NCBI GenBank assembly: GCA_946480125.1
Contig: CAMLIY010000075.1
Span: 1 to 12,409 of the forward strand
Origin: an uncultured Asticcacaulis sp.
GTDB lineage: Bacteria > Pseudomonadota > Alphaproteobacteria > Caulobacterales > Caulobacteraceae
Direction of reading: 5' to 3'
DNA length: 12,409 nucleotides
Below, in pieces: positions 497 through 12,167 of this stretch. Position 1 is the stretch's first letter. Every line of letters begins with the position of its first letter. The translations under genes and the position numbers were made by a program. The notes beneath the pieces are model-generated. The model made no database searches. It was not told where the DNA came from and saw only the letters and a program-made list of their open reading frames with translations.

Positions 497-1723
497 ATGT
501 CGCGGATGTTGAAACTGGGCCTGGTCATCTTTGCGGGCCTGTGGCCGATGCTGGCCTTTGCTGGCCCGCCACCGCGCGACAAATCGACCTGGGCCGGGAT
601 CAATACTTCGGGTGCCATCGTCAGCCCTTTTACAGACAACGAATACATAATGCAGCCGATCAGTGCGCCGGAGCCATCTCCGACCGTCCTTATCCGGAAT
701 GAAACCCGAGGCAATGTGACGGTGTTTCACACTGAGGACGCGACCGACCACCATGTTCTGGCTACCTTTCCCCCTAATCTGATCTTGAACTGGATTGAGC
801 TCCACGGGCTGATCCACGCCGGCCTGTTCGACCCCACCGAAACGTCGCTTTTCAACCGCTTTCACGAGGGCTATGTCCGGGCGACTGGCGAAATCGTCGT
901 GCCGATGATCTATAAATCCGTAGGTCCCTACGGCGTCAATGGGCTGACCCCTGTGCAAACCGATACGCAGGCTGGCTACGTTGATACTGAGGGCAATATG
1001 GTAATTCCGCTTCAGTTCAAGGATGCGGGATCCTTTGGGCCAAGTGACCTCGCGCCGGTTAAGACAGAAGGCGGCTGGGGCTATATCAACGCTCACGGCA
1101 CCTTTGTCATCCCCCCGCAATTTCCCCAAGCGCGCCAGTTTGGCGCCAACGGCCTTGCGCCCGCGGAAAAAGGTGGCCTCTGGGGCTATATCGACCGGAC
1201 GGGCAAATTCGTCATCGCACCCGCCTATGACGATGCTCAGATATTTCGTCCTGACGGCGTTGCCGTTGTCGAGCGCAAAGGCAAGGATCAGACCTACGTC
1301 GATCGTGATTTCGGCGCCTGGAAGCTAACGGCCAAGGTTTTTGCGGCACCGGAACATCCTTTTTTCGGGCCGGATCCCAGCTATAGTCTAGACATGACCG
1401 GTCATTCCAGCGACGGCAAATTGACTTGGCGCATCTGGACCATCGGCACCGGCATCGACGTAACCGCACAGATGGGAGAGAAGCCTGCGGCGATATGGAT
1501 GGGCGTCATGAACCTGCGCGACTTTCCAGACAAAGATGAAGACCTGGCCAACGACCTCGTGGCCCTTGTTAGCGAGCCGCACTCACACTCTTTGCGATAT
1601 GCCGCAGAGTTGCGGGCCAACAAGGCCAACCTCCTGAGCACCATCGCGGCGATGCGCCAGCTCAGCCAGGAACTCTTTGGCAAGCAAGGATTACCATGCC
1701 TGCCGCCGACCTGTGTCTACTAA
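497..1723 (+). CDS. Exported WG-repeat protein with a C-terminal CLPPxC domain
   Basis: The product is 408 residues. It starts with a typical Sec signal peptide (basic MSRMLK, hydrophobic 7-19, AFA at 20-22, cleavage probably after Ala22), so it should act in the periplasm or outside the cell. Residues 23-120 match nothing I know. Four WG-type repeats follow with an exact 35-residue period: the GY of each falls at 125, 160, 195 and 230, each followed by the pattern G-x-x-V-I-P. Such repeats are usually protein-binding beta structures of unknown specificity. Residues 267-408 form a separate domain, shared with the convergent gene at 1923-2561: YVxRxFGxW, FGPxP, TGHS, FPxxD, LLS, AMR, L-aromatic-GK and the terminal CLPPTC. 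Cys401 and Cys406 are the only cysteines, which suggests a disulfide. ATG at 497 is supported by a G-run site at 486-492. The molecular function is unknown. Confidence 0.85.
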   Translation: MSRMLKLGLVIFAGLWPMLAFAGPPPRDKSTWAGINTSGAIVSPFTDNEYIMQPISAPEPSPTVLIRNETRGNVTVFHTEDATDHHVLATFPPNLILNWIELHGLIHAGLFDPTETSLFNRFHEGYVRATGEIVVPMIYKSVGPYGVNGLTPVQTDTQAGYVDTEGNMVIPLQFKDAGSFGPSDLAPVKTEGGWGYINAHGTFVIPPQFPQARQFGANGLAPAEKGGLWGYIDRTGKFVIAPAYDDAQIFRPDGVAVVERKGKDQTYVDRDFGAWKLTAKVFAAPEHPFFGPDPSYSLDMTGHSSDGKLTWRIWTIGTGIDVTAQMGEKPAAIWMGVMNLRDFPDKDEDLANDLVALVSEPHSHSLRYAAELRANKANLLSTIAAMRQLSQELFGKQGLPCLPPTCVY

Positions 1724-1922: not shown

Positions 1923-2561
1923 TCAATTGAAGCACCTTGGCGGCAAGCAAGTTGAGGGACCAGAGATTTTACCGTACAGCTTCCGAACAATCTCTCTCAT
2001 TGCAGAAACCGCAGATAAAAGATCTGCATCATATTGGGCCAAATCCCCCCTTGCGTCCGGGTCAAGCGCGGCCGTATCGCGTTCGAGAGCCTCAACAACC
2101 GCAGTGTCCGTGGCCGGGAATTCATCCATTTCATCAACTGACGTCACTTTAGGTGGTATTCCATTTACCGTCTTCAAGTTCAAAGTGCGGCCATATGTCT
2201 CAATGGTCCATTTCGTCAGGCTATTCTTCGAATGGCCCGTTATCTGAACGTGCGCTTTAGGAGACGGACCGAAGGAAGAGTATTGTTTTTCGGGATAAAC
2301 CGTCACCTCCAAGTACCAGGGACCGAACCACCGATTGACATAATCCTCATACTGATCTGCTCGCCGAACGACCGGCTGCACCTCAAGTTTACCGGAGGCA
2401 GCAGCCTTCGTGTTCTCAGCTCCAGCTGAAGAGTTATCGGAATTTGACGACGAACTTGACTCAAGCAAAGTCAGCGCGGCAGCACAAGGTACAGAAGGCA
2501 CGAAAACGAGAGATCCCGCCGCTGTAAACACCGCAAAATAAATTTGCGTGATTTTGGTCAT
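1923..2561 (-). CDS. Exported protein of unknown function with the CLPPxC domain
   Basis: The product is 212 residues from the ATG at 2561. An in-frame start at 2597 exists, but 2561 has a G-run Shine-Dalgarno (GGGGGAG, four bases upstream) and places a signal peptide exactly at the N-terminus (MTKIT, hydrophobic 7-24, cleavage around Ala27-Ala29). A Ser/Asn/Ala-rich linker covers about 34-58. Residues 74-212 align with residues 267-408 of the convergent gene at 497-1723: YVNRWFGPW, FGPSP, TGHS, W-x-I-x-T-x-G, FPATD, DLLS, AMR, LYGK and the terminal CLPPRC plus two residues. The mature protein has only two cysteines (205 and 210), both in that terminal motif. Cys26 falls in the signal peptide and has no proper lipobox (SVPC). 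It looks like a version of the neighbour without WG repeats. Function is unknown; I infer an extracytoplasmic role, possibly binding the same partner. Confidence 0.8.
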   Translation of the reverse strand: MTKITQIYFAVFTAAGSLVFVPSVPCAAALTLLESSSSSNSDNSSAGAENTKAAASGKLEVQPVVRRADQYEDYVNRWFGPWYLEVTVYPEKQYSSFGPSPKAHVQITGHSKNSLTKWTIETYGRTLNLKTVNGIPPKVTSVDEMDEFPATDTAVVEALERDTAALDPDARGDLAQYDADLLSAVSAMREIVRKLYGKISGPSTCLPPRCFN

Positions 2562-2611
2562 TTCACTCCCCCAAATCCCGTGAATGTCCAAACGCATATC
2601 AAATATTGGAA

Positions 2612-3056: not shown

Positions 3057-3440
3057 ATGACCGACATGCGGAAATTGATTGATATCGTGGCTGACGTCAC
3101 TGCCTCGGAGATGCCCATTTTTGACGAATTGCTCATCGTCAAGGAAATCGAAGACCCCGGCCTTCTATGCGAAGGATGGATAAACGGCCGGTTTGAGCGA
3201 AACATTCGGATCGACGCCGGCGCCCATCTCGATGGCGGTGACAAGCATGCGCATGTTTTTGGGCGCCGAGGTGAAGAACTCATTGTGGTGAAGGTCAACG
3301 GGCGCTGCAGCCATGGCACGAGAGGCAAACTCCACCAAAAGGATGCAGACGCACTAAAAGCGAAGGATTTTAAAATCGGTGCCGACAACATCGTTGAATG
3401 GCGATCCATTGGTCACGTCTCCCATATCCTACTGGGTTAA
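3057..3440 (+). CDS. 127-residue protein of unknown function, first gene of the cassette
   Basis: I do not recognise this family with certainty. It has no signal peptide or membrane segment, so it is probably cytoplasmic. The N-terminal part (1-50) is acidic and looks helical, followed by strands. The middle has a striking HAHVFGR stretch (64-70), then an ELIVVKV strand, SHGT (84-87), and a likely helix KDADALKAKDF (95-105), ending in NIVEW (111-115). The His-x-His pair and His85 could bind a metal or form an active site, but this is only an impression. ATG at 3057 is supported by a six-G run at 3044-3049 with 7-base spacing. It ends 29 bases before the HslV-like gene on the same strand, so the two are probably co-transcribed. 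It could be a partner, substrate, inhibitor or toxin of that enzyme; the sequence does not decide. Confidence 0.75.
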   Translation: MTDMRKLIDIVADVTASEMPIFDELLIVKEIEDPGLLCEGWINGRFERNIRIDAGAHLDGGDKHAHVFGRRGEELIVVKVNGRCSHGTRGKLHQKDADALKAKDFKIGADNIVEWRSIGHVSHILLG

Positions 3441-3469: not shown

Positions 3470-4123
3470 GTGACCGTTGTACTAGTTCATACGTCCAAGA
3501 ATCATGCGTTCATCGCGGGCGACAGCGCCCGTTGGGACTGGGTTGAGAACAAGAATCTCGGTCCGGTTCGGAAAGTCCATACAGCGGGAACCGGCAACGC
3601 CTTGGCTATGGGCGGGAGCAACATCGATCGAAAAAAGCTCGCTGAGCGACTGATTGAACTGCGTAAGGAAGGCGTAGCCTTTCCCGAAGCCGCCCGCCAA
3701 GCGTCTCCAGCTTTGTTTCACGAGACCGCAGAAATTATGCGGTCGTATGGTCGGAATGACGCTCAAAATGCCATATGCTGGTATGCGGAGTGTGATGAGA
3801 GCGTTTGTAGTGTTCAACGTCACGTCCTGCCTGACGACGTGTTGGACATCGTTGTCGGCTTTGACGCAATGGGGCCGGACACCCAAGTTTTGAAACAGCT
3901 GTCGCATCAAAGGCAGATTGAGTTCACTCAAGCAGATGGGCGTTTGCCGTTAGACCAGTGGGCCTACGCGGTCATCGGAGATGCCGCCCGGATTTTCCCT
4001 AATTTTGTCTCGTTGCCTGCGATCGCCACCATTGCACGACCTCGCTCGATCAACATAATGCGCGACGATCTGCATCCGACGGCGTGGAGAGGCCCCTCTT
4101 CTGCTTTCCTGGTTTCAGTTTGA
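3470..4123 (+). CDS. HslV/proteasome-beta-like N-terminal threonine hydrolase, stand-alone
   Basis: The product is 217 residues. Compared by eye with the HslV peptidase, the first half lines up along its length. Thr2 directly follows the initiator Met, as needed for an Ntn-hydrolase nucleophile after Met removal. The strand V3-V6 and IAGDSA (15-20) match HslV IAGDG, so Asp18 is Asp17 in Thr1 numbering. GPVRKV (31-36) matches HslV GNVKKV, so Lys35 corresponds to catalytic Lys33 with one residue inserted. LAMGGS (45-50) corresponds to the glycine loop. Further on, VVGFDAMGP (128-136) parallels HslV IAIGSGGP, but the serine is missing. VIGDAARIF (168-176) parallels the IAGDICIYT region. The start is GTG with AGGAA nine bases upstream. 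No HslU, Mpa or other unfoldase lies nearby. An Anbu-like or other proteasome-fold relative is possible. Specific substrate and self-assembly are unknown. Confidence 0.65.
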   Translation: MTVVLVHTSKNHAFIAGDSARWDWVENKNLGPVRKVHTAGTGNALAMGGSNIDRKKLAERLIELRKEGVAFPEAARQASPALFHETAEIMRSYGRNDAQNAICWYAECDESVCSVQRHVLPDDVLDIVVGFDAMGPDTQVLKQLSHQRQIEFTQADGRLPLDQWAYAVIGDAARIFPNFVSLPAIATIARPRSINIMRDDLHPTAWRGPSSAFLVSV

Positions 4124-4237: not shown

Positions 4238-4450
4238 TTATTTCCTTCCAGTCTTTACAAAGCTTTTGTCGCTCTGGACAAACGCTTCCAGCATGAATGG
4301 GATCAGATCAATCACTTGTTCCGCCGTACCATAGGTGGCTTGATAGGCATCGGCATACTCCTTCAGCATCAGGTTCAGTTCAGCGCCGATGGTGATGGTT
4401 AGCTTCACCGGCGTACGATCGGGCAGCTTTCCGAGTTTCAGTTCGGCCAT
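4238..4450 (-). CDS. DUF2274 family protein, last gene of the trb operon
   Basis: This 70-residue protein (starting MAELKLGKLPDR) matches the DUF2274 family, small proteins commonly encoded directly after trbI in alphaproteobacterial conjugative elements. The core is a KLTI strand (16-19) followed by a helix-rich stretch with LNLMLKEYADAY (26-37) and IPFMLEAFV (50-58). The strand-plus-helices pattern resembles ribbon-helix-helix proteins, which would suggest DNA binding or a regulatory role in transfer; this is my inference, not established. The ATG at 4450 lies inside the 3' end of trbI (13-base overlap) and has a strong AAGGAG eight bases upstream, so it is translationally coupled. Confidence 0.8.
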   Translation of the reverse strand: MAELKLGKLPDRTPVKLTITIGAELNLMLKEYADAYQATYGTAEQVIDLIPFMLEAFVQSDKSFVKTGRK

Positions 4451-5595
4451 GATACGGCTCCTTCTTCGTAAGGCTTCAGAACGAGGTCCTTCTGGACGAC
4501 CACGCGGACCGGCCAGCCTGGCCGGACAGTGACCGAAGGCGCGATACCGATGGCCTTTGCCAAAAGCTGCTGACCGGCCTGATTGGCGGTCTGACGCGTC
4601 GCCTCACGGAAGGCCTGTACCAAATCACTATCGTTGTCGGCGCCGTCATAAGCGGTTAGCCCCAGCAGGGCCGACAGGCCGACGCCCTTGAGCAGACTCC
4701 AGGTGTGATAATCGACCTTGTCGGTCAGGCCGGAATAGCCCTGGCTGTCGGTTGCCGGGAAATTATCGATCTCCATCGATGAACCATCCGGCATGAGCAG
4801 GCGCTTCCAAACCAACAGAACCCGCGATTGCCCAAAACCCAGGTCGGATTCGTACTCGCCAAGTAGCCGGCTTCCCGCAGGGATAAGGAGGATTTTTCCG
4901 GTGACCGTGTCAAAGACCGGCGCCGTGACCTGGGCGATGATTGTGCCCGGCAGGTCAGATTTCAGGCCGGTGATCAGGCTGGCGGTAATGACCGTACCCG
5001 CCATCACCTGATAGGGTGATATCGGCGTCTGGAGACCATGGCTGTTGTAGATGCTGCTGCCCTGCCCTTTTGTGGCCACAGGCGGCACAGGTAGGGTCAG
5101 ACCGACCGGCGTCACCGCCGGCTCGACTGCCTTCGCTACCGTGGCCGCGACGTCATGGCTTGAGACCTGGAAGAAGACACCCGGCACCGACGCCTGGCTG
5201 GTCGGGGCTTCCCTTGTCCCGCCGCCGGTCTCGACCGTCGTCATGCCGCGCTGATGGGCCAGCATCGGGCCGCCAAGATCGCCTGGCAACGGCTGCCCCA
5301 ACTGAGGTACGCCAGCCGAGACCTCGGCATAGCTCTCTGGCAGGTTCTGAACCTTTTCCGGGAGGGGCTTTGCCTGATTGGCGACCGCGTCCGTACTCAC
5401 CGGCTGGGTTTTCTCGGTGTTTTTTGGGGTGGCGGGTCCGAAACCCAGCCAGGTGACGGCGAAGATCGCCGCGCACCCCAACCCCACGGCGCCGACGAGC
5501 ACCGGCCGCTTGAAGCGCACGACAGGCTCCGGCTTTCCGCGCAGGACCAGGGTTTCCGGGTCTTCCTTTAGCGGACGAGGCGTTTCCTCAGTCAT
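4438..5595 (-). CDS. trbI: TrbI, VirB10-like core protein of the conjugative type IV secretion system
   Basis: The product is 385 residues from the ATG at 5595. An in-frame start at 5685 would add 30 residues lying wholly inside trbG, whereas 5595 has GGAGG five bases upstream and overlaps the trbG stop as ATGACTGA. The layout is that of VirB10/TrbI proteins: a short cytoplasmic part (1-30), one membrane anchor (about 31-53), a proline-rich periplasmic linker (about 54-180), then the conserved C-terminal beta domain with SPYQVMAGTVI and IPAGSRLLGEY (238-248) and the DNFPATDSQGYSGL segment. It spans inner and outer membranes and joins TrbG and TrbF in the channel core. It is followed by the overlapping DUF2274 gene. 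Confidence 0.93.
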   Translation of the reverse strand: MTEETPRPLKEDPETLVLRGKPEPVVRFKRPVLVGAVGLGCAAIFAVTWLGFGPATPKNTEKTQPVSTDAVANQAKPLPEKVQNLPESYAEVSAGVPQLGQPLPGDLGGPMLAHQRGMTTVETGGGTREAPTSQASVPGVFFQVSSHDVAATVAKAVEPAVTPVGLTLPVPPVATKGQGSSIYNSHGLQTPISPYQVMAGTVITASLITGLKSDLPGTIIAQVTAPVFDTVTGKILLIPAGSRLLGEYESDLGFGQSRVLLVWKRLLMPDGSSMEIDNFPATDSQGYSGLTDKVDYHTWSLLKGVGLSALLGLTAYDGADNDSDLVQAFREATRQTANQAGQQLLAKAIGIAPSVTVRPGWPVRVVVQKDLVLKPYEEGAVSWPN

Positions 5596-6448
5596 GACCG
5601 CCTCCGGCATATGCGATACGGACGACAGACTGCCGTTTACCGCCCAGGCGGAGTTCCGCGGCGCCGAAGAGTTGGTCGACGACATAGAAGTGGCCCTGAA
5701 GCCTGTAGTTGGTCAGATTGGTGGTCCCGCCCTCGCCAATGATGTAGAGCGGCGGCAGCTCGGTTTGCGCCGCGCTTGCCGGGAATTCGATATAGGTTTT
5801 CTGGCCATCGTCGAAGGCGCGGACCGGCTTCCAGGGCACATTGGCGCCCTTCACCGTATAGCCGAACCGCAGACTTGACGGCGTTATGTCAGCCGGCGCA
5901 GACTTGACCGACTCCGGTAAAGGCGCCACCGGCATGGTTCTGGTCATGGCTTCGTCCTGAGGGTAGCGCCACGAGATCGCGGCCATAGCCGTCTTGGCCG
6001 TGCTCTCCAGCTCCAGATGATAGGTCCGGCGGCTCGTGGTGACGACGAGATTGGTTTTGAGCCCGGCGGTATAGGGCTTGACCAGAATATGGATCTGCTT
6101 GCCGGCATCGCTGCCACTGCTGGTGTCGCCGATCACCCACCGGGCGGTGTCACCAGCCGAAATCGCGATGAGCTGCTCCTGCGGCTGCAGGACGATATCA
6201 CTAACCTTGTCCGGCGCCGTGAACAGCCGAAAAATGGCACCATCGACAAAGGTGTAGACTTGGACGGCATTCAGGTAACTACCCGGTTCTGGCTCACGGA
6301 TGGCCGCCGCATTGGCCGCCAGCACCCCGGCCGCTGGCGAAACCGCATGAGCGGCGGGCCGTTTGGTCGCGGGGTGTACCGGCTTGGCGGTGGCGCTTCC
6401 CGCCGTAAATGCGGTCAACGCTAAAAAAACGATAGGTTTCAGTCGCAT
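5588..6448 (-). CDS. trbG: TrbG, VirB9-like outer-membrane core component
   Basis: The product is 286 residues from the ATG at 6448, chosen over a TTG two codons earlier because AAGGAG lies eight bases before the ATG. A signal peptide covers 1-21 (SATA, cleavage before KP), and residues 22-50 are Ala/Pro-rich. The VirB9/CagX signature is clear: the stretch with FVDGAIFRLFTAP, then LQPQEQLIAISAGDTARW, HILVKPYTAGLKTNLVV and TSRRTYHLEL. The C-terminal half (GYTVKGANVPWKPVRAFDDG, then FPA and LPPLYIIG) is the domain that joins the VirB7/VirB10 outer-membrane ring. The shine-Dalgarno overlaps the end of trbF, and the last codons overlap the trbI start, so translation is coupled on both sides. Confidence 0.93.
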   Translation of the reverse strand: MRLKPIVFLALTAFTAGSATAKPVHPATKRPAAHAVSPAAGVLAANAAAIREPEPGSYLNAVQVYTFVDGAIFRLFTAPDKVSDIVLQPQEQLIAISAGDTARWVIGDTSSGSDAGKQIHILVKPYTAGLKTNLVVTTSRRTYHLELESTAKTAMAAISWRYPQDEAMTRTMPVAPLPESVKSAPADITPSSLRFGYTVKGANVPWKPVRAFDDGQKTYIEFPASAAQTELPPLYIIGEGGTTNLTNYRLQGHFYVVDQLFGAAELRLGGKRQSVVRIAYAGGGHD

Positions 6449-6460
6449 GTTCAAAACTCC

Positions 6461-7159
6461 TTATTTTGAGGATACAGATGCGAAGTCCTGTGACCAGGCC
6501 ATGTCGGTGACGTAGATCCCGAGGGGATTCTTGCGGAGGATCGCTTCCTGGCGCGGCAAGGACTGCTGGACAGTGAGGATGGCCGTCCAATGGGTCACAC
6601 CGGCGGGAATGCCTTGCGTGAAGGCCTGTTCCTGCCATTTGACCTGGAAGGCGGTCGGTGACGCCCGCACCACACTGGTGATCGAGACCGAGGTGCTGCG
6701 CTGGCCGATTCCGGCGAACGGATCATTGGCTTGCGCCTCTGCATTCAGGAAAGCGACGGCATGGCCCGTGGCGAAACCATAGGCCTCCTGCCAGTTCTGC
6801 CGGGCCACGACGGGGTCGATCGACAGGCCTCTGACGTCGGTAATGAAACGGCCCAGATACCAGGACACTTGCGCATCGGTCGGACTATAGCTGGCGGTGG
6901 CCGGCTGGACCGCCTTGACCTGGCCCAAAGTATCGACCTCGACCACATAGGGCTTAACCCGGCTTTGGCTTGATTGCCAGATGATGCCACCGGTCAGGGC
7001 CAGGGTGCTCAGGGACGCACACAGGGCCATCAAGCGCCAATTGCCGGCCTGAACGGTGGCGGCGCCGATCCGATTGTCCCAGATTTGGGCCGCCTTCTGA
7101 TAATGGGTTATGGGTTCCGGCGTGTCGCCATAGCGCTGTAGGTTTCGTTTAAAAAACAT
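6461..7159 (-). CDS. trbF: TrbF, VirB8-like inner-membrane component
   Basis: The product is 232 residues. A short cytoplasmic N-terminus (with PITHYQKAAQIWDNRIGAA, about 16-34) precedes a single membrane segment at about 43-62. The periplasmic VirB8/TrbF domain follows, with VKPYVVEVDTLGQV (68-81), the conserved SWYLGRFITDVR, QNWQEAYGF, and a C-terminal region ending NPLGIYVTDMAWSQDF, which is the usual close of the family. It is a scaffold that nucleates assembly of the secretion channel. The ATG at 7159 has AAGGAA six bases upstream and begins three bases after the trbL stop. Confidence 0.93.
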   Translation of the reverse strand: MFFKRNLQRYGDTPEPITHYQKAAQIWDNRIGAATVQAGNWRLMALCASLSTLALTGGIIWQSSQSRVKPYVVEVDTLGQVKAVQPATASYSPTDAQVSWYLGRFITDVRGLSIDPVVARQNWQEAYGFATGHAVAFLNAEAQANDPFAGIGQRSTSVSITSVVRASPTAFQVKWQEQAFTQGIPAGVTHWTAILTVQQSLPRQEAILRKNPLGIYVTDMAWSQDFASVSSK

Positions 7160-7162
7160 GAC

Positions 7163-8374
7163 TTATTCCTTCTGGCTGATGTCGGGAGCGGCGGTGGCGA
7201 CCGGCGCGTCGCCGGCGGAGATGGCGGTCTGGACGGCATGCACATGGCCGCGCAGACGTTGTTCCTCCTGCATCTTCTTCGCCCAGTCTGGTTGCGCCTG
7301 ATTGCTGTTGGCCGCGGCGCCTTTGCCGCTGGCCGCGCCCGAGGACGTGGCCGGGGAAGGCGTTGAAGGTGGCGGCGGCGGTGGAGATTGTGGTGATGAT
7401 CCGGCGGGGCCGCCACCCTTCCCTCCACCGACCGATGCCGCGGCTTTGAGCACCTTGCCGGCGCCGCCGCCCCATCCTCCCAAGGTCTGCGCCGCCGCTG
7501 AGGCGCCCCCGGCAGCCACCATGCCGGCGGCTGCGGCGGCCCCAACGGTGCCCAGGGCCGCTCCGGCTCCCAGTTGTGGTGCGCCGGCGACGAGGCCAGA
7601 GGCGATGGACGGACCGAAGATGCCAAGACCCAGGAAGGTCAGTGCGGCCAGAACCAGCGAAAGCGTCTGGGCTATGTCGGGTTCGGTGCCGATGGTTCCC
7701 ACCGACGCGGCAAAGAAGCCGAAGCCGATCCCAATGATGACGGCCAGGACCATGATCTTGATGCCGGACGTGATGACATTCCCGAGTACGCGTTCGGCGA
7801 GGAAGGCGGTCTTGTTCCAAAAGGCAAAGGGCACGAGCACGAACCCGGCGAGAGTCGTCAGCTTGAATTCCAGGACGGTGATGAAGAGCTGGATGGCCAG
7901 GACAAAGAAGGCCAGCATGACGATCAGCCAGGCGATCAACAGGATTGCGATCGTCAGGAGATTGGACAGAAGCGTGTCCAGGCTCATCAAGTCGGTGATC
8001 TGAACCAGGAGCGGATGGGCCGCCTCGAAACCGATCCCCGCCAGCTTTCCGGGCTTGAGGAGGTCGCCCGCCGATAGGCTGTTGCTGCTCGCGTTGACGC
8101 CAAGTTGCGCGAAGGATTGATAGATCAGATTAGCAAGCGTCTGGAAGTTATTGAGAATATAGGCGAAAGCCCCGACATACAGAACCTTCTTGATCAGCTT
8201 GCCGAGCACATTGCCTTCTTCGTCCATCACCCAAAACAGGGCTGCGATGGTTACGTCGAGCGCAATCAGAAGACTGGTCAGATGGGCCAGGTCGCCTTTG
8301 AGCAAGCCGAAGCCGCTGTCGATATAACCGACAAACGTCGCCAGGAATTGGTCGATAATGTTGAGGTCGGACAT
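7163..8374 (-). CDS. trbL: TrbL, VirB6-like polytopic inner-membrane channel protein
   Basis: The product is 403 residues. About six hydrophobic segments are visible (roughly 34-50, 62-80, 134-165, 170-188, 205-225 and 236-256), matching the VirB6/TrbL fold that lines the inner-membrane part of the DNA transfer channel. After residue 258 it becomes a long Gly/Ala-rich stretch, then a low-complexity tail with six consecutive prolines (331-336). A conserved short block PDWAKKMQEEQR follows at about 362-373, as in other alphaproteobacterial TrbL proteins. The start at 8374 is ATG with only a weak Shine-Dalgarno, 20 bases after the trbJ stop. trbK, which separates trbJ and trbL in RP4 and Ti plasmids, is absent here. 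Confidence 0.92.
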   Translation of the reverse strand: MSDLNIIDQFLATFVGYIDSGFGLLKGDLAHLTSLLIALDVTIAALFWVMDEEGNVLGKLIKKVLYVGAFAYILNNFQTLANLIYQSFAQLGVNASSNSLSAGDLLKPGKLAGIGFEAAHPLLVQITDLMSLDTLLSNLLTIAILLIAWLIVMLAFFVLAIQLFITVLEFKLTTLAGFVLVPFAFWNKTAFLAERVLGNVITSGIKIMVLAVIIGIGFGFFAASVGTIGTEPDIAQTLSLVLAALTFLGLGIFGPSIASGLVAGAPQLGAGAALGTVGAAAAAGMVAAGGASAAAQTLGGWGGGAGKVLKAAASVGGGKGGGPAGSSPQSPPPPPPSTPSPATSSGAASGKGAAANSNQAQPDWAKKMQEEQRLRGHVHAVQTAISAGDAPVATAAPDISQKE

Positions 8375-8394
8375 GTCGGTCTCGCCGGAGGCTA

Positions 8395-9120
8395 TTATTG
8401 CGCGGTGTAGGCCGTGCCAGAGCCGATGAACTTCAAGGTCGCGGCCTTGCCGGCTGCCTCTCCTTGCACCTTGCGGGCGGCGTCCAGGGCCTCGGCACGA
8501 TATTGGGCCGCCATAAGGGTGGCGATCTGCATCTGCTGCTTGGCCGTCAGGGCGATCAGCTGATTGGCCGCCTGCTGGGCCTGGAGGTCACCCTCGGCGC
8601 CATCGGAGGCACTCACCAGGTCATTCAGAGTCCCCGCGTCGGTCTGGAGGGTTTCGCTGATCTGGGCCTGGACCAGCAAGGTCTGCTGGAAGGCATCCAT
8701 AGCGCTCTGCCAGCGTGTGGTCGCATCAGTGGTCAATTGTTGACTGGTGACGCCTGCGGAATAGGACGACGGATACTGCGCCTTCAGGGCCGCTTCGGTC
8801 TTGGAGATCGTGAAGGCGATGCCCTTGGCCTGGGTCATCAGGTCATTGATCGCCGCCAGGTCCGAATTGAGCTTCAGGATAGCCGTGACATCGAGGTGCT
8901 TGAGATTGGTGGCCATGTTCTGCAGCATCTGGGCCTCATGCTGGAGCTGCAGGATCTGGTTGTTAACCTGTTCCAGGGCGCGGGTGGCCTGGAGGATGTT
9001 CTGAACATAATTGGTTGGGTCATAGACGACGACTTGAGCGGCCACCGGTTGTGCGACGACGCCGAGGGTGGCGACACCGGTCAGGCCGGCGACGAGGATG
9101 GAGAACAGTTTACGACGCAT
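8395..9120 (-). CDS. trbJ: TrbJ, VirB5-like periplasmic component
   Basis: The product is 241 residues. A signal peptide covers 1-28 (MRRK, hydrophobic core, VAA before QVVVYDP). The family signature VYDPTNYVQNILQATRALEQVNNQI follows, leading into a long helical, Gln-rich region (about 45-85) likely to form coiled coil. The rest is almost entirely helical and ends with an Ala-rich stretch (ALDAARKVQGEAAGKA). TrbJ proteins act at the pilus tip or in pilus assembly and mating-pair contact. The ATG at 9120 has AAGGA eight bases upstream and starts 16 bases after the trbE stop. Confidence 0.93.
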   Translation of the reverse strand: MRRKLFSILVAGLTGVATLGVVAQPVAAQVVVYDPTNYVQNILQATRALEQVNNQILQLQHEAQMLQNMATNLKHLDVTAILKLNSDLAAINDLMTQAKGIAFTISKTEAALKAQYPSSYSAGVTSQQLTTDATTRWQSAMDAFQQTLLVQAQISETLQTDAGTLNDLVSASDGAEGDLQAQQAANQLIALTAKQQMQIATLMAAQYRAEALDAARKVQGEAAGKAATLKFIGSGTAYTAQ

Positions 9121-9136
9121 GGACTTTCCTTCGGGA

Positions 9137-11560
9137 TCAGGGGTTAGAGGGTTGGGGTTTGAGCAGGTCGCTGGCCCAGTGGTACCCGCGCGCTTTCAGG
9201 AACTCGGCGACGAAGGCATCCGCGCCAACGCTGTCCAGAACGCTGTCGATCAACTGTTGATCTTCGGGCGCAGACGCTGCGCAAACGGTCAGGGCGACCG
9301 GCCCCAGGTCGAGATCGAACAGGCGGTTGCCACGCCGGGATTGCAGGTAGTAGTGGCGCTTGGGGATAGCCTCGGCGATCAGTTGAATTTGGCGATCATT
9401 CAGGCCGATGCGCTCATAGGCGACCCGCGATTGCGGCTCCTGCGCCCGTTCATTAGGCAGGAACAGGCGCTGCGGGCAGGACTCGATGATGGCCGGCGCG
9501 ATGGGGCTATCGATGATGTCCATCAGGGACTGGGTGGCGAAGACGACGCTGACATTCTTCTTGCGCAGGACCTTCAGCCATTCCCGAATGCGCGCCGCGA
9601 ACAAGGGATTGTCGAGAAACAGCCACGCCTCATCGAGGATCAAAAGGGTCGGCCGGCCGTCGAAACGCGCATCCAGGCGATGGAACAGATAGGTCAGCAC
9701 CGGCCCGACCAGGCTGCGTTCCGACATCAGATCTTCGGTCTCAAAGCAATGGATGTCGGCGAGATCGAGCCCGTCGCTATCGGCGTCCAGGCACTGTCCG
9801 TAGGGACCTTCGAGAGTGAAGGGATGCAAGGCGATCTTCATACTCATGGAGGACAGGAGCGCGCTTAGGCCGGTCAGGGTCCGTTCCGCTTCCGGCGCGG
9901 TGGCGAGGCTGCACAAGGCCGCCCACATGTCCCCTTTGCGCTCGGGTGTCACTTCGAACCCTTCGCTATCGAGCAGCCCTAAGCACCATTCCATGGCCCA
10001 GGCACGGGTTGCCGGATCGTCGATATTACGCAGTGGCTGGAAACTCAGGGCCGCGGTCCGCCCCAAGGTATGGTGGCGCCCTTGCATGGCCAGGGTGGTG
10101 GCTCGCGCCGATCCGCCCTTATCGAAGATGAAGACCTGGGCACGGGCATAGCGACTGAACTGCAAAGTCAGAAATGACAGCAGGACCGACTTACCCGCGC
10201 CGGTTGGGCCCAGGACCAGCATATGGCCGACATCGCCCACATGGGTTGACAGGCGGAACGGCGTCGCGCCGGAACTGACAGCGTAGAGCAGTGGCGGGCC
10301 GTCCAGGTGGGTATTACGCTCCGGCCCGGCCCACACGGCAGACAGGGGCATCAGATGAACCAGGTTGAGGGTATGAACGAGCGGCTGGCGGACATTGGCG
10401 TAGACATGTCCCGGCAAGGACCCAAGCCAGGCCTCGACGGCATTCAGGCTTTCCCGTACTGTTGTGAAGCCGAGGCCATTGATCGCGCGCTCGACCGCGC
10501 GGATCTGCTCGTCGGCCTGGTGCGGATCGGTGTGGCTCACCGTCAGGGTGATTGTCAGGTAACCGAAACCAACATCGTCACCGCCCAGGGCCTGAAGGGC
10601 CTGATCGGTATCGGCGACCTTGTTGTCCGCGTCGGTATCGGTCAGGATAGTCGGTTGGCTGTACATCACTTCGCGCAGAAGCGCCGTGACGGACTTGCGC
10701 TTGTTGAACCATTGCCGGCGCACGCGGGTCAGGGTCTTGGTGGCGGCTTCCTTGTCCAGGGGGATAAACCGTGTCACCCAACGATAGCTGATTTCCATAT
10801 GGTTCAGAGCATCGAACAGGCCCGGCTGGGTTTGATTCGGGAAACCCAGAACGGTCAGGGTGCGCAGGTGCCTGTCGCCCAGACGCGGCGCCATTCCGCC
10901 ACGGAGCGGTGTGTCGGCCAGGAAGGCGTCGAGATAGACCGGCGTGTCGGGCACCCCCACGGCATGGGCTTCGGTCGAGACTGTGCTGTGAAGATAGGTC
11001 AGGGTCGCCCGGTCATCGAGCGCCTCAACGTACGGCATGAAGCTGGCGAAGAGGTCGATGGCCGCATCGGTCCGGTTTTGGAATGTCGCCAGTTCCCGGT
11101 GCCAGTCGCGCGGTTGGCCGGCCGATTCTGCCCGTTCGATGAGCATTGTGCCGGCCTTAGACACAGCATCCGGCGCCGGCATGAAGACCAGGGTCAGATA
11201 ATAACGGCTCTCGAAATGCCGCCCGACCTCTCCTTCAAACGCCGCCCGGCGTTCCGCCTCGACCAATTCCGCAATCCCTGCCTCCGCGCCGGGCGACGGA
11301 TAGCCCAGTGCCTCGTCTCGGCGCGCCTCGAAGAAGATGGCCCAGCCCGACCCGAACCGACGCAGGACATTGTTGACCCGGGCCGAGATACTGACGAGTT
11401 CAGCGGGGGTGGCGCTCTCTAAGTCCGGCCCCTGATAGCGGATCGTTCGCTGGAAACTGCCATCCTTGTTGAGGACAATGCCGGGCGCCACGAGGACGGC
11501 CCAAGGCAGGTGATCCGCCAGGCGATCGGCATTCGATTTATATTGCCGAAGATTTAGCAT
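9137..11560 (-). CDS. trbE: TrbE, VirB4-like secretion ATPase
   Basis: The product is 807 residues from the ATG at 11560 (MLNLRQYKSNADRLADHLPW, the usual TrbE N-terminus). A frame extension to 11680 lies wholly within trbD and is rejected. The N-terminal half carries the CagE/TrbE-type domain. Walker A is GPTGAGKS at about 451-458 and Walker B LLILDEAW at about 639-646, followed by the conserved KKNVSVVFATQS. All catalytic motifs are intact, so it should be an active ATPase powering pilus biogenesis and DNA translocation at the inner membrane. The start overlaps the end of trbD by seven bases (ATGCTAA), with a moderate AAAGG ten bases upstream. Confidence 0.95.
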   Translation of the reverse strand: MLNLRQYKSNADRLADHLPWAVLVAPGIVLNKDGSFQRTIRYQGPDLESATPAELVSISARVNNVLRRFGSGWAIFFEARRDEALGYPSPGAEAGIAELVEAERRAAFEGEVGRHFESRYYLTLVFMPAPDAVSKAGTMLIERAESAGQPRDWHRELATFQNRTDAAIDLFASFMPYVEALDDRATLTYLHSTVSTEAHAVGVPDTPVYLDAFLADTPLRGGMAPRLGDRHLRTLTVLGFPNQTQPGLFDALNHMEISYRWVTRFIPLDKEAATKTLTRVRRQWFNKRKSVTALLREVMYSQPTILTDTDADNKVADTDQALQALGGDDVGFGYLTITLTVSHTDPHQADEQIRAVERAINGLGFTTVRESLNAVEAWLGSLPGHVYANVRQPLVHTLNLVHLMPLSAVWAGPERNTHLDGPPLLYAVSSGATPFRLSTHVGDVGHMLVLGPTGAGKSVLLSFLTLQFSRYARAQVFIFDKGGSARATTLAMQGRHHTLGRTAALSFQPLRNIDDPATRAWAMEWCLGLLDSEGFEVTPERKGDMWAALCSLATAPEAERTLTGLSALLSSMSMKIALHPFTLEGPYGQCLDADSDGLDLADIHCFETEDLMSERSLVGPVLTYLFHRLDARFDGRPTLLILDEAWLFLDNPLFAARIREWLKVLRKKNVSVVFATQSLMDIIDSPIAPAIIESCPQRLFLPNERAQEPQSRVAYERIGLNDRQIQLIAEAIPKRHYYLQSRRGNRLFDLDLGPVALTVCAASAPEDQQLIDSVLDSVGADAFVAEFLKARGYHWASDLLKPQPSNP

Positions 11561-11817
11561 GAGAGGTGGGCCTTTTGTCTGAGATGCCGAAGGAGGACCG
11601 GCACGAAGTCCAGGTCGTAGCGGGCGCACAGGACCGCCAGGGTGTGCCCAGCGGCCCAGACGGCAAGGCCCGGAATCCACATCTGCAGACCGAGGCCGAG
11701 GGCGGCTGCCACGGTGCCGTTGGCAATGGCCAGGGTCCGTGGCGCGCCGCCCAGCAGGATCGGCTGGGTCAGGGCGCGATAAAGGGGGACATCGAAGCCC
11801 TCGACGCGCCCGGTCAT
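11554..11817 (-). CDS. trbD: TrbD, VirB3-like inner-membrane protein
   Basis: The product is 87 residues. It has the VirB3/TrbD hallmark VPLYRALTQPILLGGAPR (10-27), then two adjacent hydrophobic segments (about 27-45 and 48-64) and a basic tail. It sits in the inner membrane and works with TrbE in pilus assembly. The start was set at the ATG at 11817, which overlaps the trbC stop as ATGA; the same frame is open further upstream but only as a shadow of trbC. The stop overlaps the trbE start. Confidence 0.9.
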   Translation of the reverse strand: MTGRVEGFDVPLYRALTQPILLGGAPRTLAIANGTVAAALGLGLQMWIPGLAVWAAGHTLAVLCARYDLDFVPVLLRHLRQKAHLSC

Positions 11818-12167
11818 GCGATTAGCGCCCCGCCGCCGAAGCTGAAAAAGGTGAGGAAGAAACTGGAGGCGGCAAAAGCGATCGACAGACCGAAGACGAT
11901 CTGGATGAGCTTGCGAAAGCCTCCGGATGCCTCCCCGAAAGCCAGGGTCAAACCAGTGACGATAATGACGATCACCGCGACAATCTTGGCGACAGGCCCC
12001 TGGATGCTGTCGAGAATATTCTGCAGGGGCGTTTCCCACGGCATTCCGGTGCCGCTGGCGTGGCTGGCCGTGGCCAGGCCGAGGGTCAGGCCCGCAACGG
12101 CCAGGATAAACACGGACGGGTGTAGGCGTCCCGCGAAACGGAGGCGATTGGAAGCGAAAGTTTTCAT
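11814..12167 (-). CDS. trbC: TrbC, VirB2-like conjugative pilin
   Basis: The product is 117 residues. A long leader (1-37, basic start, hydrophobic 18-34, ASHA before SGTGMPW) is followed by PLQNILDSIQGPVAK and two hydrophobic helices (about 62-76 and 91-110) separated by a short loop with FGEASGGFRK. This is the layout of VirB2/TrbC pilins, which are processed and polymerised into the conjugative pilus. In RP4 the mature TrbC is cyclised by TraF; whether this one is cannot be read from the sequence. AGGAGA lies six bases before the ATG at 12167, and trbB ends 14 bases upstream. Confidence 0.92.
   Translation of the reverse strand: MKTFASNRLRFAGRLHPSVFILAVAGLTLGLATASHASGTGMPWETPLQNILDSIQGPVAKIVAVIVIIVTGLTLAFGEASGGFRKLIQIVFGLSIAFAASSFFLTFFSFGGGALIA

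What the first reader, a model, noticed from the sequence alone, without database searches (positions are those of the whole stretch)
3470..4123. Stand-alone HslV/proteasome-like threonine hydrolase in mobile-element cargo
Thr2 after the initiator Met, Asp18 (Thr1 numbering 17) and Lys35 (equivalent to Lys33) stand in the HslV pattern, with matching GD, RKV and GG segments and later blocks in the same order. No unfoldase is encoded in the window, and the serine of HslV GSGG is replaced (GFDAMG). A free proteasome-fold enzyme beside a transfer operon is unusual and could have a defence, toxin-processing or anti-restriction role; that role is inference.
Basis: partly seen in the sequence, partly recalled or inferred. 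Interest (0 to 1): 0.75.

Follow-up and report, generated by a model that had tools for sequence, protein, structure and literature searches.

The report
Stray proteasome-like enzyme on conjugative element
A gene beside a DNA-transfer operon encodes a small protein with the predicted fold and catalytic residues of proteasome subunits, from a rare and apparently undescribed branch of that family; its job in the cell is unknown.

Summary

It does not look like an HslV: no Pfam match, empty profile comparison, no Ser of GSGG. It is not Anbu either: the C-terminal helix is missing. The family is tiny as far as seen: eight protein clusters (capped searches) plus one disrupted copy on Sphingomonas plasmid pISP2. 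Fuchs et al. 2021 (PMC8665760) already described 22 uncharacterised proteasome-like subfamilies, with no AAA+ partner identified and some phage-borne, so this is a new member of a known kind. Whether it is one of those 22 could not be tested. Most likely it is a stand-alone N-terminal-threonine peptidase; substrate and assembly are unknown. A defence or toxin link rests on weak neighbourhood observations.

The parts
3470..4123 (+). Proteasome-like Ntn threonine hydrolase, 217 aa, GTG start
   Evidence: ORF; AF2 model pLDDT 86.4; Foldseek and VIA matches to proteasome subunits and Anbu; conserved catalytic residues
3456..3461 (+). AGGAAA, ribosome-binding-like site 8 nt before the GTG
   Evidence: read in sequence
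3473..3475 (+). Thr2 codon: predicted N-terminal nucleophile (Thr1) after Met removal
   Evidence: present in 9 of 9 N-terminally complete rows; first aligned pair with Anbu 5lox is model 2 / chain 1
3521..3523 (+). Asp18 codon (proteasome Asp17)
   Evidence: 9 of 9 N-terminally complete rows
3572..3574 (+). Lys35 codon (proteasome Lys33 equivalent; 34 in Thr1 numbering)
   Evidence: 9 of 9 N-terminally complete rows
3611..3616 (+). Gly48-Gly49 codons (Gly47/48 in Thr1 numbering; oxyanion-hole Gly)
   Evidence: 10 of 10 rows of A7
3857..3874 (+). GFDAMG, at the place of HslV GSGG; no serine
   Evidence: pairing with GSGG made by eye
3057..3440 (+). 127-aa ORF, 29 nt upstream on the same strand, possible operon partner; unknown family
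   Evidence: relatives in L006 and L011
4238..4450 (-). DUF2274 gene at the end of the trb operon, convergent with the finding
   Evidence: PF10038 E 3.5e-23
4438..12167 (-). trb conjugation genes (TrbI, G, F, L, J, E, C)
   Evidence: Pfam: TrbI, CagX (TrbG), VirB8 (TrbF), TrbL, CagE_TrbE_VirB, TrbC; TrbJ by position only (recalled order), with a sub-cutoff DUF4141 match

Best explanation
A stand-alone proteasome-like Ntn hydrolase from a small, apparently undescribed subfamily carried as cargo next to a trb conjugation operon. The start Met is removed by host methionine aminopeptidase (inferred), exposing Thr2 as the N-terminal nucleophile. Lys35, oriented by Asp18, activates it and the Gly48 region forms the oxyanion hole (inferred from conserved positions and fold). 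It most likely works as a peptidase on particular small or unfolded proteins without a dedicated AAA+ unfoldase, alone or as a small homo-oligomer. Shown here: the ORF, the predicted fold, the conserved catalytic residues, and few relatives in the searches made. Inferred: Met removal, activity, substrate class, assembly.
Against: No Pfam match in 8 of 8 members, and PF00227 does not find the pISP2 copy though it rings in 10 of 14 control genomes; no PDB sequence match to proteasome-family proteins; profile comparison with HslV empty. So relatedness rests on fold and residue register. The proteasome Ser129 equivalent is missing, so chemistry may differ from a standard peptidase. Foldseek TM-scores are moderate (0.50-0.59 on the query, rmsd 5.4-9.3 in the 50 rows). 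Residues 21-30, part of the active-site surroundings, have mean pLDDT 52. No activity data; BPH itself was inert on standard substrates.
Confidence: 0.82

Rival explanations
1. A proteasome-fold protein that is not a protease: a specific protein ligase or transpeptidase (connectase-like), or a small-molecule amidase, working as a monomer.
For: Connectase, a monomeric proteasome homolog, is a ligase, and the Ntn clan is functionally diverse (PMC8665760). The Ser129 position is replaced.
Against: Connectase lacks H1-H2 and has a two-helix insertion between S3 and S4. Here both helices are predicted (54-66, 71-92), Asp18-Lys35 is only one residue longer than in E. coli HslV, and 4 residues separate the strands 36-38 and 43-50, so there is no room for that insertion.
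Confidence: 0.25
2. A true HslV that uses a host HslU in trans.
For: Same fold class and catalytic residues; the HslV sequences also run Thr1...Asp17...Lys33/34. One of 8 family members touches PHROG 1040 'peptidase HslV family', at E 0.32.
Against: Profile-profile probability 0.1% (thin alignments of 8 and 3 rows); serine of GSGG missing; the three HslV sequences aligned share 53-55% with E. coli HslV whereas this family shows no detectable profile similarity.
Confidence: 0.03
3. The gene and the 127-aa ORF upstream form a peptidase-linked toxin-antitoxin-like or defence module.
For: 29-nt spacing on the same strand. Two relatives of the 127-aa ORF lie near HTH-ImmA peptidase genes that match PADLOC PD-Lambda-2_B (E 2.4e-40, L011) and RmrA (E 1.4e-63, L006). 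The pISP2 copy lies near a Y4mF-type antitoxin gene.
Against: Only two relatives seen; one has a 165-aa ORF in between, the other a 481-nt gap; neither record has a match to this family (which the tool calls uninformative). No PADLOC match for either window ORF. Model of the 127-aa protein unusable, pLDDT 43. No 127-aa partner was seen upstream of the pISP2 copy in the ORF list around it.
Confidence: 0.1
4. Not a functional gene: a decayed or chance ORF.
For: The pISP2 copy matches P0002 at 162 of 165 residues and then abruptly differs, so the gene can be lost.
Against: Nine full or partial relatives at 35-95% identity, the catalytic residues kept wherever the N-terminus is present; plausible ribosome-binding site; coherent model.
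Confidence: 0.01

Closest known systems
Anbu (ancestral beta-subunit)
   Different: About 10% identity; no C-terminal H5 helix in the model
20S proteasome beta subunit (PF00227)
   Same: Fold, Thr/Asp/Lys and Gly positions
   Different: No Pfam match in 8 members; no propeptide in 8 of 9 rows; no alpha partner among the window ORFs scanned
HslV
   Same: Fold class and Thr-to-Asp spacing
   Different: GSGG serine missing, no HslU seen in the window, no profile similarity
BPH, PPH, AAH and the other proteasome-like subfamilies of Fuchs et al. 2021 (PMC8665760)
   Same: Mostly uncharacterised homologs without identified unfoldases; PPH and AAH also travel on mobile elements (phages)

Membership tests
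Proteasome-like family (fold and active site, sense of Fuchs et al. 2021) | Shared Ntn beta-sheet core with flanking helices | tested here: met
   By predicted model only
Proteasome-like family (fold and active site, sense of Fuchs et al. 2021) | Thr1, Asp17, Lys33 and Gly47 equivalents conserved | tested here: met
   9 of 9 N-terminally complete rows for Thr, Asp and Lys; 10 of 10 for Gly48
Proteasome-like family (fold and active site, sense of Fuchs et al. 2021) | N-terminal Thr exposed in the mature protein | not testable with these tools
   Met-Thr start favours Met removal (recalled rule; shown for BPH in PMC5777263)
Pfam PF00227 Proteasome | Profile match over the curated cut-off | tested here: not met
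   0 of 8 members at E<=1; 0 of 1 on pISP2, with 10 of 14 control genomes ringing
HslV | Sequence-profile similarity to HslV | tested here: not met
   hhalign probability 0.1%, 10 columns; thin profiles of 8 and 3 rows
HslV | GSGG motif with its serine | tested here: not met
   GFDAMG in the window; D, N or H at residue 132 in the 7 rows; pairing by eye
HslV | HslU partner | tested here: inconclusive
   No unfoldase seen among 12 window ORFs scanned; no AAA_2 match on pISP2, the one replicon searched; host chromosomes not available
Anbu | C-terminal H5 helix for the coiled coil | tested here: not met
   Model ends in a strand at 214-216, no helix of 4 or more residues after 175
Connectase | No H1-H2; two-helix insertion between S3 and S4 | tested here: not met
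   H54-66 and H71-92 present, no room for the insertion
PPH / RPC | Lacks H2; PPH about 140 residues | tested here: not met
   H2 predicted 71-92; 217 aa
DPH, AAH, CPH, BPH, GPH, PHD, FC1-5, DAH, PMI, PHI, WPH, ACC | Sequence cluster membership | not testable with these tools
   Their alignments are held elsewhere (Mendeley t48yhff7hs)

The most novel reading that the evidence does not exclude
The 127-aa protein and the Ntn threonine hydrolase are a two-gene mobile module in which a proteasome-fold peptidase takes the regulatory place that an HTH-ImmA metallopeptidase holds near relatives of the 127-aa protein: a proteasome-type peptidase acting in a toxin-antitoxin or anti-phage system.
Probability: 0.07. 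Interest if true: 0.8.

Novelty: new member of a known kind. Interest (0 to 1): 0.42.

Why it matters
It adds what looks like a further, rare branch of the proteasome-like family, here beside a conjugation operon; the survey of that family (PMC8665760) discusses phages as carriers and does not use the word plasmid in its main text. The serine that assists the threonine in relatives is naturally changed. The protein is small, so activity and assembly can be tested directly, which bears on what proteasome relatives do without an unfoldase.

Tried and rejected
Rejected: HslV identity; Csy3 similarity in the PDB profile search, 5 sequences at E 0.68-0.85, treated as chance; weak plasmid tblastn hits other than pISP2, E 0.08-7: the Vibrio ones lie under dmpG, the Ensifer one and one of the four Rhizobium ones were looked at and lie in other ORFs, three Rhizobium ones were not opened; phage tblastn hits, 9 records at E 2-8; NCBIfam Lmo0654 E 0.18; PHROG matches, best E 0.0018 for phrog_36792 of unknown function in 2 of 8 members, and phrog_1040 'peptidase HslV family' in 1 of 8 at E 0.32, not used as evidence.

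Led nowhere: genome-contig scans (29 and 42 stretches matched a pattern, none a relative) and viral-contig scans for this family (none). tblastn of plasmids with five family members (window, P0003, P0005, P0006, P0007) found only pISP2 at E<=1e-5. HslV is not among the 50 VIA rows shown, which excludes nothing. First 50 kb of Serratia phage Moabite read for its annotated protease subunit, not found there, dropped. Structure of the 127-aa protein unusable. The contigs behind P0001-P0008 could not be reached with the tools, so the context of eight of the nine relatives is unknown. Window DNA has no near match in plasmids.

Caveats on counts: searches scored only the 7997 candidates sharing most words, so the family may be larger; P0003 was found and is missing, probably for that reason. 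P0001 lacks the N-terminus and was left out of N-terminal counts; P0008 carries 34 residues before the shared Met-Thr. P0002 and the pISP2 copy are 98% identical over 165 residues, so the rows are not all independent. Only the first 165 codons of the pISP2 ORF went into the alignments. The L007/L008 'phage' records used for the HslV profile are unverified and may be bacterial DNA.

Full report
What is there. ORF 3470-4123 on the + strand starts with GTG, has AGGAAA 8 nt upstream, and encodes 217 residues. It sits convergent to the last gene (DUF2274) of a trb transfer operon: TrbI, TrbG/CagX, TrbF/VirB8, TrbL, TrbE and TrbC are recognised by Pfam. Its GC3 is 0.58 against 0.73-0.79 for the seven trb genes measured, in line with cargo of other origin. 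A 127-aa ORF (3057-3440, 29-nt gap) precedes it on the same strand.

Sequence evidence. Alone, the protein has no match worth naming in Pfam, NCBIfam or PADLOC, none in PDB sequences, and finds one cluster (1 of 261 candidates scored) in a database of 5.8 billion proteins. Plasmids gave one relative, an ORF on pISP2 of Sphingomonas sp. MM-1, 39% over residues 1-166, E 6e-31, with no gene listed there in the PLSDB table, which is incomplete. That copy is 98% identical to P0002 over its first 165 residues and then abruptly unlike it, although weak similarity to P0003 can be drawn to residue 206; it ends inside a region annotated as a transposase gene on the other strand, so it is probably disrupted. 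Using its first part in a profile brought the total to eight protein clusters. Thr2, Asp18 and Lys35 are present in 9 of 9 N-terminally complete rows and Gly48 in 10 of 10. In the 7 N-terminally complete rows of A2, 28 of 217 positions never vary and the four catalytic positions are all among them. 8 of 9 rows begin exactly at Met-Thr; the ninth (P0008) has 34 residues before it, possibly a miscalled start.

What it is not. Against HslV (3 sequences including E. coli K-12) the profile comparison is empty, and the serine of GSGG has no counterpart: GFDAMG here, with D, N or H at residue 132 in the 7 rows. PF00227 matches none of 8 members. Sequence-level homology to any named proteasome relative is therefore not shown; it rests on fold and catalytic register. 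The model lacks the Anbu C-terminal helix and the connectase insertion, and has the H2 that PPH and RPC lack (with PMC8665760).

Place in the literature. Fuchs, Alva and Lupas 2021 (PMC8665760, parts 1-5 of 6 read) describe 22 new proteasome-like subfamilies, report no co-occurring AAA+ partners or telling gene context, and expect many more. They required at least 10 representatives per cluster; this family has eight clusters here, one of them with an NCBI source, so it may have fallen below that limit, an inference. Six literature searches (listings only) showed no title or abstract start about a proteasome-like gene on a conjugative element or in phage defence; one search listed 20 of 23 papers, and the library holds only openly licensed papers.

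How it likely works. Host aminopeptidase removes Met (inferred), Thr2 becomes the nucleophile, Lys35 and Asp18 activate it, and the Gly48 backbone forms the oxyanion hole (inferred from position). Without an unfoldase in sight it would act on peptides, unfolded or specific proteins. The missing Ser129 equivalent leaves room for slower or different chemistry, including ligation.

Neighbourhood. The 127-aa ORF has two relatives found here: 58% (best segment) in an IMG/VR contig, one ORF away from an HTH-ImmA gene matching PD-Lambda-2_B, and 46% in Shinella oryzae, 481 nt after an HTH-ImmA gene matching RmrA. PD-lambda-2 is a toxin-antitoxin-like defence system (PMC9519451, passages). This is a lead, not evidence of function for the hydrolase: two cases, neither directly adjacent, and no match to the hydrolase family in either record.

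Verdict. It is best filed as a rare, apparently new subfamily within a known and already diverse family.

Noticed in passing
3057-3440 (+): 127-aa ORF of unknown family; relatives in Shinella oryzae pZ25 (L006:4929-5336) and an IMG/VR contig (L011:4848-5282), both near HTH-ImmA genes that match defence or toxin-antitoxin models.
   Followed up: partly
497-1723 (+) and 1923-2597 (-): A WG-repeat protein and a 224-aa protein share a C-terminal domain (33% over 156 aa, E 1e-21) that has no Pfam match above cut-off in the second protein.
   Followed up: partly
L001:12001-12642 (NC_020543.1 from 41954): A relative of the hydrolase on Sphingomonas sp. MM-1 plasmid pISP2, not listed as a gene in PLSDB and apparently disrupted after residue 165, near a Y4mF-type antitoxin gene and a transposase gene.
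   Followed up: yes
records (among them L007, L008): 13 records filed under phages carry HslV genes, 4 of them 95-99% identical to E. coli HslV and 9 under 60%; probably bacterial DNA in phage assemblies.
   Followed up: no
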